From positions 1 to 34,568 of IMG/VR virus record IMGVR_UViG_3300025151_000142: 34,568 nt of DNA; one strand, given 5' to 3'. Positions 1 to 27,509 of this stretch are shown piece by piece. The notes under the pieces were generated by a model. That model made no database searches, was not told where the DNA came from, and saw nothing but the letters and a program-made list of their open reading frames with translations. This stretch comes from a virus. Made by a program: the position numbers and the translations under genes. The first letter of the stretch is position 1; the number at the start of each line of letters is the position of its first letter.

Positions 1-143
1 AATTGTCAGTTATTCCGAGCGAAGTTGATCGTGTAAAAGTTCTTCTTGAGCAGGCAGCGCCTTTGGCTGGACAGTACTACCGGCTTCGTATTCCCATTAC
101 GGCATCAGCTGATTCAGGTAGTAACTGGGCGGCTACACACTAA
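1..143 (+). CDS. Unknown protein, C-terminal end only (5' end outside window)
   Basis: An open frame enters from the left edge and stops with TAA at 141-143, leaving the last 46 residues. The fragment contains a charged helix-like stretch followed by a segment with LAGQYYRLRIPITASAD and ends SNWAATH. I do not recognise it. It lies on the same strand as the accessory genes that follow and could belong to a longer virion or tail protein, but nothing in the fragment proves that. Confidence 0.5.
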   Translation, partial: LSVIPSEVDRVKVLLEQAAPLAGQYYRLRIPITASADSGSNWAATH

Positions 144-183
144 TTGTTCGCCGTAAACCAGTAATTTCATTTACTATAAAGTT

Positions 184-467: not shown

Positions 468-611
468 ATGATTAAAATAACCCCTGAAACGTACGAAAAG
501 ATGAATGAGGAATTTCAAGAGGAAGGTACTCCTTTTTCAATCGTCGTTCCTACACAAGAAACAATTGATGAGTGGTTACAACAGACTAAATTGTTCGCTG
601 CAAACCAGTAG
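468..611 (+). CDS. Small hypothetical protein (47 aa)
   Basis: A 47-residue acidic protein (MIKITPETYEKMNEEFQ at the N terminus) ends at 611, directly before the glutamine riboswitch. A longer reading from 429 is possible, but the first 13 residues would overlap the previous gene and look non-genic. I prefer the ATG at 468, ten bases after the upstream stop. It has no known domain. Its closeness to the riboswitch could mean read-through transcription into the switch, or that the switch has its own promoter in the A/T-rich stretch 611-633. Confidence 0.45.
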   Translation: MIKITPETYEKMNEEFQEEGTPFSIVVPTQETIDEWLQQTKLFAANQ

Positions 612-633
612 CATTTGCTACATTTAATATATA

Positions 634-681
634 CGTTCATCCCTTCTTGGGACGCAAGTAAGCCAGAGGCTGAAGGAACGG
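634..681 (+). promoter_or_regulatory. Glutamine riboswitch (downstream-peptide / glnA class)
   Basis: Closing helix P1 is CGTTC (634-638) with GAACG (676-680). A second hairpin is TCCC (640-643) with GGGA (649-652). A third is AGCC (661-664) with GGCT (668-671). Between and after them lie the hallmark junction strings GACGCAAGTA (651-660) and TGAAGGAACG (671-680), against a remembered consensus of GACGGAAGTA and GAAGGAACG. The one core difference I see is a C where a G is usual in the first string. Glutamine riboswitches of this type occur in cyanobacteria, where they precede nitrogen-regulated genes or short peptides, and the downstream-peptide class has been reported in a cyanophage. A strong ribosome site (GGAGG, 700-704) and a 61-aa peptide follow. 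The mode of control (hiding the ribosome site or ending transcription) cannot be read directly. Confidence 0.9.
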
Positions 682-710
682 GAAATTTCTAAACACTATG
701 GAGGTTTCCA

Positions 711-896
711 ATGTCTAACATCGAAGTGCGTGCAATCGAAAAAGCACGTGATGATCTCAAGCGTGCTCAAAAAGAGTATCGTCGTGCAATGCTACGTGAT
801 ACCCACTATCGCGGTGTATCAACTGTGATTTTCCCTGAAGAACCTCAGGAAGTTCACGGTACGTTTGTCTATCGTGGTATTAAGTACACCAAATAA
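711..896 (+). CDS. PirA/DUF4278-like riboswitch-controlled downstream peptide
   Basis: This 61-aa peptide is the only gene between the glutamine riboswitch and a strong terminator. Its N-terminal half is a charged helix (about residues 6-30, rich in Lys, Arg and Glu). Its C-terminal half carries two YRG motifs, YRGV near residue 33 and YRGIKY near the end, the signature of DUF4278-type cyanobacterial peptides. In Synechocystis the DUF4278-type peptide PirA binds the nitrogen regulator PII and tunes arginine and nitrogen flux. A phage copy could alter host nitrogen assimilation in response to glutamine. Translation is well supported by GGAGG six bases before the ATG. The family assignment rests on motifs and genomic context, not on an alignment. 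Confidence 0.8.
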   Translation: MSNIEVRAIEKARDDLKRAQKEYRRAMLRDTHYRGVSTVIFPEEPQEVHGTFVYRGIKYTK

Positions 897-904
897 TTAA
901 GTGT

Positions 905-933
905 CCTCAGCATAACTGCTGAGGCCTTTTTTT
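905..933 (+). terminator. Rho-independent terminator after the peptide gene
   Basis: A perfect 8-bp stem CCTCAGCA/TGCTGAGG with loop TAAC (905-924) is followed by CC and a run of seven T. It ends the riboswitch-peptide transcript, making it a self-contained unit. Confidence 0.9.
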
Positions 934-2180: not shown

Positions 2181-2864
2181 ATGCGTAAAGCAGGTCAATT
2201 AATTGCAGAATATTTACGTGAAAAGAAGCTTTCTTCAAACAGAGAATCTCCCATTGGCATGGGTGCTTATGGGCGCGTTTATCCTTCTAATCTCGAAGGT
2301 TATGTGATTAAAGAAAAGCATCGTCCAGGTGAATGGACAAATTATCACGATAATAGTTATACAGATGAAGCAGGGTTACAGGCAGCTGCTGCTGAAATGG
2401 GCATAGCCCCTCAGGTCTCTTCTGTCGAAACATTCCGTGGTGGCATTGGTGATCGCATTGAAATGCAAGATATTCGTAAAAACTTTGAGATGCCCCCAGT
2501 TTCATCCCAATGGCCCACTGGTCAGAACGCTATACGTATTAACCAGCAGTTGGGTCAGTTAGCCCTCAAAGGAATTGACTTAGATGATCGTCACGCTGGT
2601 AATGTTGTCTATAACAAAATGACTGGAAGGCCGATGCAACTTGACTTTGGCCGTGCTTCTCGTGTCGAGGGTGAGATGCAAATTGATGCCTTAACTAGAG
2701 CCACAGCAGATGGATTTGCTGCTGCTGGGCTCAATGATGTTGCTGAGATCTTCAGAGATACCGTTTATGACCTCATGGCTGGTGGTGACTTTAAAGAAGC
2801 CATGGATGTCGCTAAGCAAGGCTTTAGTAGGCTTCAAAAAATTAAAGAGCCTATACTTTCTTAG
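2181..2864 (+). CDS. Protein-kinase-fold protein
   Basis: The 227-aa protein carries the main landmarks of a kinase fold in order. These are a glycine-rich loop GMGAYGRVY (26-34), a lysine in YVIKEK (K44), a helix-C type glutamate (E63), a hinge-like IEMQDI (93-98), a catalytic loop LDDRHAGNVVY with D136 and N141 at the canonical spacing, and a metal-binding DFG (155-157). It lacks the usual C-lobe length and the HRD histidine-arginine pair, so it is a minimal or atypical kinase. ATG 2181 is forced by an in-frame TAG immediately before it. The only ribosome-site-like sequence (AAAGGA, 2158-2163) suits an out-of-frame ATG at 2173 better. Its tail overlaps the convergent gene by 14 nt. Possible roles are host-protein phosphorylation or a virion-carried enzyme. 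Confidence 0.7.
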   Translation: MRKAGQLIAEYLREKKLSSNRESPIGMGAYGRVYPSNLEGYVIKEKHRPGEWTNYHDNSYTDEAGLQAAAAEMGIAPQVSSVETFRGGIGDRIEMQDIRKNFEMPPVSSQWPTGQNAIRINQQLGQLALKGIDLDDRHAGNVVYNKMTGRPMQLDFGRASRVEGEMQIDALTRATADGFAAAGLNDVAEIFRDTVYDLMAGGDFKEAMDVAKQGFSRLQKIKEPILS

Positions 2865-23578: not shown

Positions 23579-24733
23579 TCAATAAACGAAAGAGTAACCA
23601 ACCGTGATGAAGTCCTTGTTCAGGATTTCAAAACCGGCAAACAGCGACCAGATCATGATAATAAAACGCGAGAAGTCGTCGTTGTTATTTAAAAGAATCT
23701 GAGCGTTGTTACCACCAATACCTACACCGACAGCTTGAGGTCCGAAGAAGATCAGCTGGCTTGCGCCGTAATCAGCAGCGGAACTACCTGCAGTCGCGTC
23801 GTTCACAACGAGGTTATAGGTGGTTTCAGGGAGGTTGGTTGACTCGAACCAACGGACGCCTTCAAATAGAAAGCCAGTGGGCATCACGGGCTGACCAGCA
23901 ACGAAACCAGCCTGACCGTATGCAGGACCCATGCCTTGATAGAAGTTGGCGTTAGGTGCCTGATTGGGCTGCATGGGGTTAATCATGCCTGAGCCCGGAT
24001 AGCGTGCGATCTCGCGGAAATCGCTGTCCTGACGCAGATGCATCATCGCGGTCGGATCCACGATGCAGCGGTAGTACCCATCGGCGAAGGTCGGGACATT
24101 GCGCTTACGCATATCCTTAACAACTTCCAGCAGGTCGGTGCTCACATCAAACTTGGCAGATTCGCCAGCTGCATAAGTCACACCCAAAGTGCCACCAGAT
24201 CCACCTTTGGCTTTACTGCCAGGCAGGTAGTAACCACCTTGCTCTGAGTTTGCTTCGCCATTGGCTTCAGCTTTCAGAAGTTCGTTAGCGAACACCCGGT
24301 CGCGCCAGCGGCGGTAGTCGTCCAACAGCGTAAGTGAACCAATGCTTTGATGGAAGACATTGAGGTTGCCGGTGTCCAGAAGCAGGCGCTGCGCGGTGAT
24401 CAGGGTTTCCCGAGCCACTTTGAAGGTGGAAGGCTGGGCCGTATCACGAGTATCAGCAGGTCCCGTATATTCACGAAGCGTTACTAATACCTTGTCTTTT
24501 ACAATGTTGCGGGCGGATGCGGTGCCAAGAGTTTGGTCAGCGGTCCGCTCACGGGACTCCTTAGTGCCAGGCTTGCCCCAGAAGCGGTATCTATCCAGCT
24601 GGACCGTTTGACCGGGCTGTTTGCTGAAATCGTGGACTACCACTGGCTCAACTGCCATCTCAATGATGTAGGCAGGATGAGGACGGTAAAGCTCTGCACC
24701 AAGAAGCTTGGGAAAATCATTATCAATCCACAT
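23579..24733 (-). CDS. Major capsid protein (HK97-fold, N4 gp56/P22-type family)
   Basis: The 384-aa protein has the typical organisation of this capsid family: an N-terminal arm (MWIDNDFPKLLGAELYRPHP), a segment around FSKQPGQTVQLDRYRFW with the conserved framework Gly and hydrophobics, a spine helix region (WRDRVFANELLKAEA), a YYRCIVDPTAMMHL core strand typical of such capsids, and a C-terminal FEGVRWFESTNLPE block. The length suits a shell protein. G/C-rich codons set it apart from surrounding genes, as expected for the most abundant virion protein. CGGAGA lies nine bases upstream of the ATG. The family choice is by pattern; capsid identity is also supported by order (portal, scaffold, then capsid). 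Confidence 0.8.
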   Translation of the reverse strand: MWIDNDFPKLLGAELYRPHPAYIIEMAVEPVVVHDFSKQPGQTVQLDRYRFWGKPGTKESRERTADQTLGTASARNIVKDKVLVTLREYTGPADTRDTAQPSTFKVARETLITAQRLLLDTGNLNVFHQSIGSLTLLDDYRRWRDRVFANELLKAEANGEANSEQGGYYLPGSKAKGGSGGTLGVTYAAGESAKFDVSTDLLEVVKDMRKRNVPTFADGYYRCIVDPTAMMHLRQDSDFREIARYPGSGMINPMQPNQAPNANFYQGMGPAYGQAGFVAGQPVMPTGFLFEGVRWFESTNLPETTYNLVVNDATAGSSAADYGASQLIFFGPQAVGVGIGGNNAQILLNNNDDFSRFIIMIWSLFAGFEILNKDFITVGYSFVY

Positions 24734-26567: not shown

Positions 26568-27509
26568 TTACAACAAACCATTTATCTCCTGACCTAACTC
26601 TCGCAGATTCCTAATTGCTTTTTGCTCTAATGTACGTACACGATCTCTGCTCATATTTAGTATTTGCCCGATTGCTGTCATAGACATAGGTTCAAGCACA
26701 TCTTCACCAATTCCATATCTCATGCTGATTACTGCTGCTTGCATCTCTGGTAAGTCGCCAATCAGCTCCCTCACATCTTCTTTTATACAAGCACGCTCTA
26801 GAAGCATTTCTGGTAATTGAGTTTCGTCTTCAAGTAAATCAATCAATGCTGTATCTCGATTCTCACCAATTTTTATTTCCAATGAAGTTGGTTGCCTAGC
26901 TTTGCACATCAGATCTTTCACAGCATCTGCCGTTAGTTCAAGCTCTTCTGCAAGCTCTGCTACGGTCGGCATGTAACCGTTAATTTGGCTTAATTCACGC
27001 TGAGCTTTCTTAAGGCGGTTGAGGTTTTCTGTAACATGAATCGGTAAGCGTATTGCCCTTGATTTCTCCGCAATGGCCCGCGTGATACCTTGCCGAATCC
27101 ACCAATAAGCATAAGTAGAGAACTTGTAGCCACGACCAGGATCAAACTTCTCCACACCACGAACCAAACCAATGGTGCCCTCCTGGATGATATCCAGTAA
27201 TTCCATGTTCCGTTTAGTGTATTTCTTGGCGACTGAAACAACAAGCCTGAGATTAGCAGTGACCATTTTGTCTTTTGCCTTTGTGCCATCTCGCAGCTCA
27301 CGTCGAAGCTCCTGTTTTGATAGTCCTAGAGAAACGGCCAATTCTTCTGTTGTCGGGTTTCCCAATAACTCTTCGCATGCTTTAATCTCCATTAGTCGTT
27401 GTACTTTTCGACCTAACAAGATTTCCTCATCATGTTCTAGTAACGGGATTCTTCCAATATCACGCAGATATGCACGAACAGAATCACCGGAGATTTTTGG
27501 TTGCGGCAT
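26568..27509 (-). CDS. Cyanobacterial-type RNA polymerase sigma factor
   Basis: The 313-aa protein is a sigma-70 family member of cyanobacterial group-2 type. It has region 1.2 (DSVRAYLRDIGRIPLLEHDE, about 9-28), regions 2.1-2.4 (NLRLVVSVAKKY, LLDIIQEGTIGL, YKFSTYAYWWIRQGITRAI), region 3 (RLPIHVTENLNRLKKAQREL), and regions 4.1-4.2 (VISMRYGIGED, MTAIGQILNMSRDRVRTLEQ). It lacks region 1.1, like group-2 sigmas. The promoter-recognition parts look intact, so it should bind host core polymerase and redirect it. It is embedded in the late operon. A phage-borne host-type sigma differs from the short gp55-like late sigma typical of T4-like cyanophages. Confidence 0.95.
   Translation of the reverse strand: MPQPKISGDSVRAYLRDIGRIPLLEHDEEILLGRKVQRLMEIKACEELLGNPTTEELAVSLGLSKQELRRELRDGTKAKDKMVTANLRLVVSVAKKYTKRNMELLDIIQEGTIGLVRGVEKFDPGRGYKFSTYAYWWIRQGITRAIAEKSRAIRLPIHVTENLNRLKKAQRELSQINGYMPTVAELAEELELTADAVKDLMCKARQPTSLEIKIGENRDTALIDLLEDETQLPEMLLERACIKEDVRELIGDLPEMQAAVISMRYGIGEDVLEPMSMTAIGQILNMSRDRVRTLEQKAIRNLRELGQEINGLL

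What the first reader, a model, noticed from the sequence alone, without database searches (positions are those of the whole stretch)
634..933. Phage-borne glutamine riboswitch driving a PirA/DUF4278-like peptide
Seen: a full glutamine-riboswitch architecture (P1 CGTTC/GAACG, two inner hairpins, GACGCAAGTA and TGAAGGAACG), GGAGG ribosome site, a 61-aa peptide with two YRG motifs, then a strong terminator. Known: in picocyanobacteria this RNA senses glutamine and precedes short peptides; PirA-type peptides bind PII. Inference: the phage senses host nitrogen status through RNA and releases a PII-targeting peptide. The G-to-C change in the junction may alter ligand affinity.
Basis: partly seen in the sequence, partly recalled or inferred. 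Interest (0 to 1): 0.85.

Follow-up and report, generated by a model that had tools for sequence, protein, structure and literature searches.

The report
Phage glutamine switch before small peptide
A virus of a photosynthetic Synechococcus-type bacterium carries an RNA element of the known glutamine-sensing type that probably releases a small basic peptide when the host is rich in nitrogen; the sensor is a known kind, but its re-wired core and the hairpin it shares with the start signal appear to be new.

Summary
Window 632-684 (+) is a glutamine-I riboswitch (RF01739, 49.3 bits, threshold 35), followed by a Shine-Dalgarno (SD) site, a 61-aa peptide (711-896) and a terminator (905-934). The phage is related to Synechococcus phage S-EIV1. 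The 'G-to-C change' is at linchpin base 23 and is compensated by G at base 60: of 193 distinct collected aptamers with the P1 5' strand nearby, 192 can form this pair. Base 60 also opens a hairpin that buries the SD, in 84 of 84 C-G-type leaders with a start codon nearby. I infer a translational ON switch at high glutamine. The peptide belongs to a cyanophage family (phrog_545) and is DUF4278-like but below the Pfam cut-off. PirA kinship and a PII target are not supported; nitrogen assimilation, perhaps glutamine synthetase, is my untested guess. In T4-like cyanophages the aptamer is split, and in 66 of 84 distinct places a whole small ORF lies inside it, from a start codon next to or in the P2 stem to a stop codon in the core, while P2 and P3 still pair with compensatory changes. 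New variant of a known kind.

The parts
593..631 (+). promoter-like region: GTTCGCTGCAAACCAGTA (593-610), GTAN8TAC (608-621), -10-like TACATT (619-624), so that the RNA would begin at the aptamer
   Evidence: Element 593-610 recurs at 146-163; 2 matches, 0.08 expected, but the pattern was drawn from these very sequences. GTAN8TAC as such is not enriched in the window (5 found, 4.84 expected). The -10 assignment is by eye; the sigma-70 scan found no promoter here.
632..684 (+). glutamine-I riboswitch aptamer (P1 634-638/676-680, P2 and P3 hairpins, AAGUA/GAA loop)
   Evidence: RF01739 49.3 bits, gathering 35; P3 supported by changes on both sides at 4 of 4 pairs in 39 leaders
655..655 (+). base 23 of the linchpin pair, here C
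   Evidence: RF01739 consensus G; C in 41 of 43 loci
681..681 (+). base 60, here G; expected partner of C655 when glutamine is bound, and first base of the SD hairpin
   Evidence: pair known from papers; covariation; hairpin
681..709 (+). hairpin that buries the ribosome-binding site (expression platform)
   Evidence: -11.5 kcal/mol for 681-713, z -4.33; SD unpaired probability 0.01 or less; changes on both sides at 3 of 5 counted pairs
700..704 (+). Shine-Dalgarno GGAGG
   Evidence: sequence
711..896 (+). 61-aa basic peptide with two YRG motifs, phrog_545 family
   Evidence: phrog_545 E 1.5e-8; PF14105 13.8 bits, below cut-off; tblastn matches at E up to 1 in 272 phage records, all named Synechococcus phage, cyanophage or Prochlorococcus phage, all under 60% identity
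905..934 (+). intrinsic terminator
   Evidence: 8-pair stem 905-924, 4-nt loop, then CCTTTTTTTA

Best explanation
A cyanophage of the S-EIV1 kind transcribes a short RNA that starts near a glutamine-I aptamer and ends at a terminator behind one small gene. With little glutamine, base G681 (position 60) closes a strong hairpin, 681-709, that hides the SD, and the peptide is not made. With glutamine bound, C655 (position 23) swings into P1 and pairs with G681, as the linchpin pair does in known glutamine-I aptamers. This takes away the closing pair of the SD hairpin and favours translation: an ON switch for nitrogen-replete cells. Shown by computation: the aptamer, the covarying linchpin, the conserved SD hairpin that shares base 60, and a conserved basic peptide. 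Inferred: glutamine binding, ON polarity, the transcript's ends, and that the peptide, a basic helix plus a DUF4278-like YRG hairpin, acts on host nitrogen assimilation (glutamine synthetase more likely than PII).
For: RF01739 at 49.3 bits. Linchpin: of 193 distinct collected aptamers with a CGTTC strand within 45 nt upstream, 192 have bases 23 and 60 that can pair, as C-G, as G-C, or once as G-U. The pair is described as G23-C60 in glutamine-I (PMC11477058, passage) and as C19:G41 in glutamine-II (PMC6698751). SD hairpin: in the C-G subtype base 60 pairs within 14 nt of the start codon in 84 of 84 leaders counted and the SD is at least 75% paired in 78 of 84; over all 190 leaders counted base 60 does so in 114, against 10.8% in shuffles that keep the SD. 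Covariation on 39 leaders: the score is above all 500 shuffles in both forms of the structure; 3 of 5 measures (bound form) and 4 of 5 (SD-hairpin form) are reached by 0 of 500. In L029, where base 60 is C, its hairpin partner is G. Sites with C at base 23 precede a YRG peptide in 75 of the 76 cases where an ORF was found. Host glutamine riboswitches activate expression and are mainly tied to DUF4278 genes, such as PMM1846 of Prochlorococcus (PMC6316151, passages). AlphaFold2 model: helix 3-31 and a C-terminal beta hairpin, pLDDT 80.7, pTM 0.40. The 27 aligned peptides are basic, net charge +2 to +8.
Against: Blocking base 681 in the folding model costs about 4 kcal/mol but leaves the SD paired, so the linchpin alone does not explain full opening. 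In the G-C subtype base 60 pairs near the start codon in only 30 of 105, so the shared-base design is not general. The peptide misses the DUF4278 cut-off, has no relative among solved structures by sequence and no significant one by fold. No host homologue was reached: the one genome scan returned three contigs, all from metagenome-assembled genomes. The closest isolate, S-EIV1, has no glutamine riboswitch at Rfam threshold (record scanned in two halves). Many of the aptamers are closely related, so the counts are not independent events.
Confidence: 0.55

Rival explanations
1. The peptide is a PirA-like PII binder that blocks PII signalling.
For: PirA is a short basic, nitrogen-regulated peptide (PMC8092223, passages); the phage peptides are short and basic.
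Against: PirA is reported absent from marine picocyanobacteria, though the window's host may be a lake species. No sequence link to PirA was found, but its sequence was not in reach. A 12-column fold match to a GlnK chain (E 8.6) has no weight.
Confidence: 0.08
2. Same riboswitch, but the peptide has nothing to do with nitrogen; the phage uses glutamine only as a clock or fitness cue for one of many early host-takeover peptides.
For: Sites with G at base 23 precede mostly other short peptides (90 of 109 with an ORF have no YRG). A phage tmRNA is said to lie under a glutamine riboswitch too (PMC9004378, passages).
Against: Sites with C at base 23 nearly always precede a YRG peptide (75 of 76 with an ORF), the kind tied to glutamine riboswitches in hosts.
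Confidence: 0.3
3. The SD hairpin is a static attenuator and the aptamer acts as an OFF switch or acts on RNA stability.
For: The SD stays paired in the model even when base 681 is blocked.
Against: Host relatives are ON switches (PMC6316151; PMC6698751); the conserved sharing of base 60 predicts that bound aptamer and hairpin compete.
Confidence: 0.12

Closest known systems
Glutamine-I (glnA, type 1) riboswitch, RF01739
   Same: P1-P3 junction, AAGUA/GAA loop, GAAGGAACG, above the Rfam threshold
   Different: Linchpin pair swapped to C-G against the Rfam consensus; base 60 begins an SD hairpin; phage-borne
Glutamine-II (Downstream-peptide, type 2) riboswitch, RF01704
   Same: Also has a long-range C:G pair (C19:G41; PMC6698751) and precedes short peptides in picocyanobacteria (PMC2864571 passages; PMC6316151 passages)
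   Different: Pseudoknot fold; the window keeps the P3 hairpin of type 1, and RF01704 is not at threshold in it
gifB/IF17 and PMM1846: glutamine riboswitch plus DUF4278 protein of cyanobacteria
   Same: Glutamine aptamer in the 5' UTR of a small DUF4278-type gene (PMC6316151, passages)
   Different: Phage peptide has a basic helix before the YRG part, a sub-threshold DUF4278 score, and no IF17-like part was shown; host sequences were not compared
Glutamine riboswitches of T4-like cyanophages and of the OM43 phage Melnitz
   Same: Phage-borne; mentioned in PMC9964418 and PMC9602691 (passages) and PMC9004378 (passages)
   Different: The passages I saw tie none of them to a YRG peptide; Melnitz's sits by a tmRNA; the window is S-EIV1-like, not T4-like
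PirA (Ssr0692) of Synechocystis
   Same: Short basic nitrogen-linked peptide
   Different: No homology shown or tested; reported absent from marine picocyanobacteria

Membership tests
Glutamine-I riboswitch RF01739 | Covariance-model score at or above gathering | tested here: met
   49.3 against 35 bits
Glutamine-I riboswitch RF01739 | P1, P2 and P3 three-way junction | tested here: met
   Folds so; P3 varies on both sides at 4 of 4 pairs; P1 never varies because the search patterns fixed it
Glutamine-I riboswitch RF01739 | Linchpin pair between bases 23 and 60 | tested here: met
   C655-G681, the swapped form; 192 of 193 collected aptamers with P1 nearby can pair here
Glutamine-I riboswitch RF01739 | Selective binding of L-glutamine | not testable with these tools
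   needs in-line probing or ITC
Glutamine-II riboswitch RF01704 | Score at or above gathering | tested here: not met
   No RF01704 match at threshold in the window
DUF4278 (PF14105) | Score at or above the curated cut-off | tested here: not met
   13.8 against 25.3 bits; 19 of 27 relatives match at E up to 0.1
phrog_545 (family of unknown function) | Significant profile match | tested here: met
   E 1.5e-8 for the window peptide; 22 of 27 members at E up to 0.001
PirA | Sequence homology to Ssr0692 | not tested
   PirA's sequence was not in reach of the tools used; literature reports it absent from marine picocyanobacteria
PirA | Binding to PII | not testable with these tools
   needs a pull-down
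S-EIV1-like cyanophage | Homologous major capsid protein | tested here: met
   68.2% identity over the 383-aa query, the only record matched; relatives in 4 of 17 riboswitch-bearing records searched

The most novel reading that the evidence does not exclude
Viruses of cyanobacteria, and perhaps of other marine hosts, use a re-engineered glutamine-I aptamer as a general gate for small takeover peptides. The window is the simple form, where one base (60) serves both the ligand-locked junction and the hairpin over the start signal. In T4-like cyanophages the aptamer has been split and a whole protein gene is built into it: the start codon lies at or in the P2 stem, the stop codon in the ligand-binding core, and the two halves rejoin through P2 and P3. 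Translating the inner gene and folding the sensor would then exclude each other, so that one RNA couples glutamine sensing to the order in which two peptides are made.
Probability: 0.5. Interest if true: 0.85.

Novelty: new variant of a known kind. Interest (0 to 1): 0.62.

Why it matters
It would show that phages read host nitrogen directly through RNA, with a sensor wired so that one base decides between ligand binding and ribosome access. It offers a natural compensatory swap of a linchpin pair known from crystal structures, which is easy to test. The peptides are candidates for phage control of cyanobacterial nitrogen assimilation. The split form in T4-like cyanophages, if its fold is confirmed, would be a protein gene built into a riboswitch aptamer; three searches of the held library (listings) showed me no report of one, and most subscription papers are not in that library.

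Tried and rejected
PirA reading: not supported by the literature seen and no sequence link was found, though PirA's sequence was not in reach. Fold search of the peptide: best solved structure at E 2.6; in the viral library nothing at E 0.001 or better, best 0.13; ranks 2, 5 and 10 are cyanophage proteins named DUF4278, none significant. NCBIfam: nothing above cut-off. Plasmids: no match, with a relative of the window peptide as query. DNA search of 560-960 in phage records: no match at E 1e-5. Host relatives by genome scan: one peptide pattern, 8 stretches, 3 confirmed, all on contigs of metagenome-assembled genomes not labelled cyanobacteria; L054 has RF01739 above threshold, L055 only below threshold (split form), L056 none. 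NtcA: GTAN8TAC lies at 608-621 and 161-174 and in 12 of the 22 rows (11 of the 14 rows that precede a riboswitch), but TAC overlaps the -10-like box and the motif is not enriched in the window, so it is a lead only. A first count of charges covered 10 of 27 peptides because row names collided; it was repeated on all 27. Of 209 aptamer-like sites, 9 cannot pair at 23-60; 8 of these have no CGTTC within 45 nt upstream and look like chance matches, two of them being one site held twice; the ninth (L343) has CGTTC and is mismatched. Eight further sites that can pair also lack CGTTC there.

Full report
What is there. The window is a 34,568-base virus record. At 632-684 on the + strand Rfam finds a glutamine riboswitch aptamer (RF01739, 49.3 bits, gathering 35), the only match at gathering in the window. 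The RNA folds into P1 (634-638/676-680), P2, P3 and, directly after P1, a hairpin 681-709 that contains the SD GGAGG (700-704); the ATG is at 711. A 61-aa ORF follows (711-896), then a terminator-like stem 905-924 with a T run.

Whose it is. The capsid protein (23579-24733, -) is 68.2% identical to one of Synechococcus phage S-EIV1 over its length, and no other phage record matched; the host of S-EIV1 came from a high arctic lake. The window also encodes part of a terminase, a sigma-factor-like protein, an integrase-like protein and a cyanophage outer-membrane-like protein (PF24653). S-EIV1 itself has no glutamine riboswitch at threshold. I searched 17 of the 44 riboswitch-bearing virus records then held; 4 encode the same capsid protein at 88-98% identity, and the others may be fragments. 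A near-identical locus, L007, carries the same riboswitch (52.4 bits) and a peptide 98% identical.

The changed base. The RF01739 consensus has G where the window has C655. By my alignment with the crystallised sequence printed in PMC5393176 (passage) this is base 23. A review says that glutamine binding inserts G23 into P1, where it forms a linchpin Watson-Crick pair with C60 (PMC11477058, passage); in glutamine-II the like pair is C19:G41 (PMC6698751, parts 1-3 of 5 read). In the window base 60 is G681, so the pair is kept as C-G. In 43 loci found with a pattern that left base 23 open, 41 are C/G and 2 are G/C (34 and 2 distinct); none is mismatched. With two wider scans, one for G and one for the other bases at 23, and the loci already held, 209 distinct aptamer-like sites were collected: 113 G/C, 86 C/G, 10 others. 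Base 60 was left open in all of them. Of the 193 with CGTTC within 45 nt upstream, 192 can pair (one as G-U) and one cannot.

The expression platform. Base 60 is also the first base of the SD hairpin. In 39 distinct leaders it pairs in 38 and the SD is fully paired in 32. In the wider set with a start codon near (190), base 60 pairs within 14 nt of the start codon in 114, against 10.8% of shuffles that keep the SD; all 84 of the C-G subtype do, but only 30 of 105 of the G-C subtype. Pairs covary: P3 at 4 of 4 pairs, the SD hairpin at 3 of 5, and no shuffle of 500 reaches the observed covariation score; the number of pairs with a change on both sides is reached by 36 of 500 shuffles for the bound form and 3 of 500 for the hairpin form. 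P1 never varies because the patterns fixed it. In L029 the linchpin is G-C and the hairpin partner of C60 is G; L028, also G-C, has no such hairpin. So base 60 has two exclusive partners. Taking it away costs about 4 kcal/mol in the model, but the SD remains paired. The ON direction therefore rests on this competition and on the ON behaviour of host relatives (PMC6316151, passages; PMC6698751), not on a calculation.

The peptide. It belongs to phrog_545 (E 1.5e-8), found in T4-like cyanophages too: tblastn gave 272 phage records at E up to 1, all below 60% identity. In an alignment of 27 relatives the C-terminal YRG..Y is invariant, 22 have two YRG and 5 have one, and all are basic, net charge +2 to +8. 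Pfam DUF4278 is matched below cut-off by the window peptide (13.8 against 25.3 bits) and at E up to 0.1 by 19 of 27; a 50-aa peptide behind the riboswitch of L028 passes (26.5 bits). The AlphaFold2 model has a helix 3-31 and a C-terminal beta hairpin, pLDDT 80.7, pTM 0.40. No relative of known structure was found. Formal DUF4278 membership is thus not met; 'DUF4278-like' is fair. In cyanobacteria glutamine aptamers are mainly tied to DUF4278 genes, and DUF4278 covers the N-terminal part of the glutamine synthetase inhibitor IF17, a part said to be dispensable for its function but to add stability (PMC6316151, passages). Hence the guess that the phage peptide touches nitrogen assimilation; its target is unknown. 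PirA is not supported.

The wider class. Sites with C at base 23 (90) precede a YRG peptide in 75, another ORF in 1, none found in 14; sites with G (114) precede another short ORF in 90, a YRG peptide in 19, none found in 5. The ORF was taken as the first one behind an SD-like motif, and many sites are related. Still, aptamer subtype and gene travel together.

The split form. Upstream of the homologous peptide in T4-like cyanophages (L001-L006) lie two half-aptamers. In 66 of 84 an ORF of 49-65 codons starts 9-11 bases after the start of CGTTCA (59 at 10, 4 at 11, 3 at 9), next to or in the 5' arm of P2, and ends at the TGA inside the core GACGCAMNNNNNTGAAGG; its last residues are DAND in 51, DAHD in 13 and DANG in 2. 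Of the other 18, 5 have a short hairpin and no ORF, 10 another insert, and 3 run off the contig. P2 still pairs across the ORF: all 66 have at least 4 consecutive pairs, of which the search pattern fixed the letters of the first two on one side; the summed length is 350 pairs, against a mean of 315 and a maximum of 327 in 500 redeals of the 3' arms. Examples of change are TCCC/GGGA, TCCT/AGGA and TCTA/TAGA. The 5' arm of P3 lies in the first half and the 3' arm in the second: of 65 places with both, 59 have AGTCG/CGACT, 2 AATCG/CGATT and 1 AGTCA/TGACT (compensated), 3 have a G-U, none is broken. Bases 23 and 60 are C and G in all 84 second halves, where the scan fixed base 23, and in all 65 first halves, where it did not. 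The inner gene is annotated with this very start in syn9 (gp197), S-SM1 (SSM1_203) and one ACG-2014a record; in Syn33 the annotated start lies further upstream. Three examples match phrog_504 (2) and phrog_13397 (1), both of unknown function. The half-aptamers of five of the six phages L001-L006 score below the Rfam threshold and the sixth (L004) gave no hit, which may be why this was passed over; a survey of tandem riboswitches counted them only where no ORF intervened (PMC9481103, passages). I saw no report of it in the listings of searches of the held library, which lacks most subscription papers and the paper of Klahn et al. 2018.

Verdict. A real, well-supported phage glutamine riboswitch of a swapped-linchpin subtype with an SD-hairpin platform, in front of a small basic YRG peptide. 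The kind is known, the variant is new, and the nested form in relatives deserves a bench test.

Noticed in passing
L001-L006, L055, L057-L136 (for example L006:1186-1410): Split glutamine aptamer of T4-like cyanophages with a whole small ORF inside P2 and its stop codon in the core in 66 of 84 places; P2 and P3 pair between the halves with compensatory changes.
   Followed up: partly
L003:607-1195: In phage S-H68 an annotated 573-nt ORF (621-1193) also lies between the two half-aptamers; its C-terminal end looked by eye like the end of a homing endonuclease. Not searched.
   Followed up: no
L178-L297: Viral glutamine aptamers with G at base 23 precede many different short peptides, some with two aptamers in tandem (for example L200, L249, L287).
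   Followed up: no
window 142-181 and 589-627: Two copies of AATTGTTCGCYGYAAACCAGTA-N8-TAC just before -10-like boxes; several riboswitch loci share the element. It may be a phage promoter or an NtcA-like site.
   Followed up: partly
window 2181-2864: 227-aa protein with a non-significant ABC1/kinase match (E 0.17); by eye similar proteins lie downstream of the peptide in L010, L031, L032 and L040.
   Followed up: no
window 26568-27509: Sigma-factor-like protein (phrog_351, E 2.2e-81), which might recognise the promoter elements above.
   Followed up: no
G005 (record of L020) C1:22122-23247, and G010 (record of L032) C1:75354-76495: Capsid gene read in two pieces in both, with one in-frame TGA in G005: frameshifts or assembly errors.
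   Followed up: no
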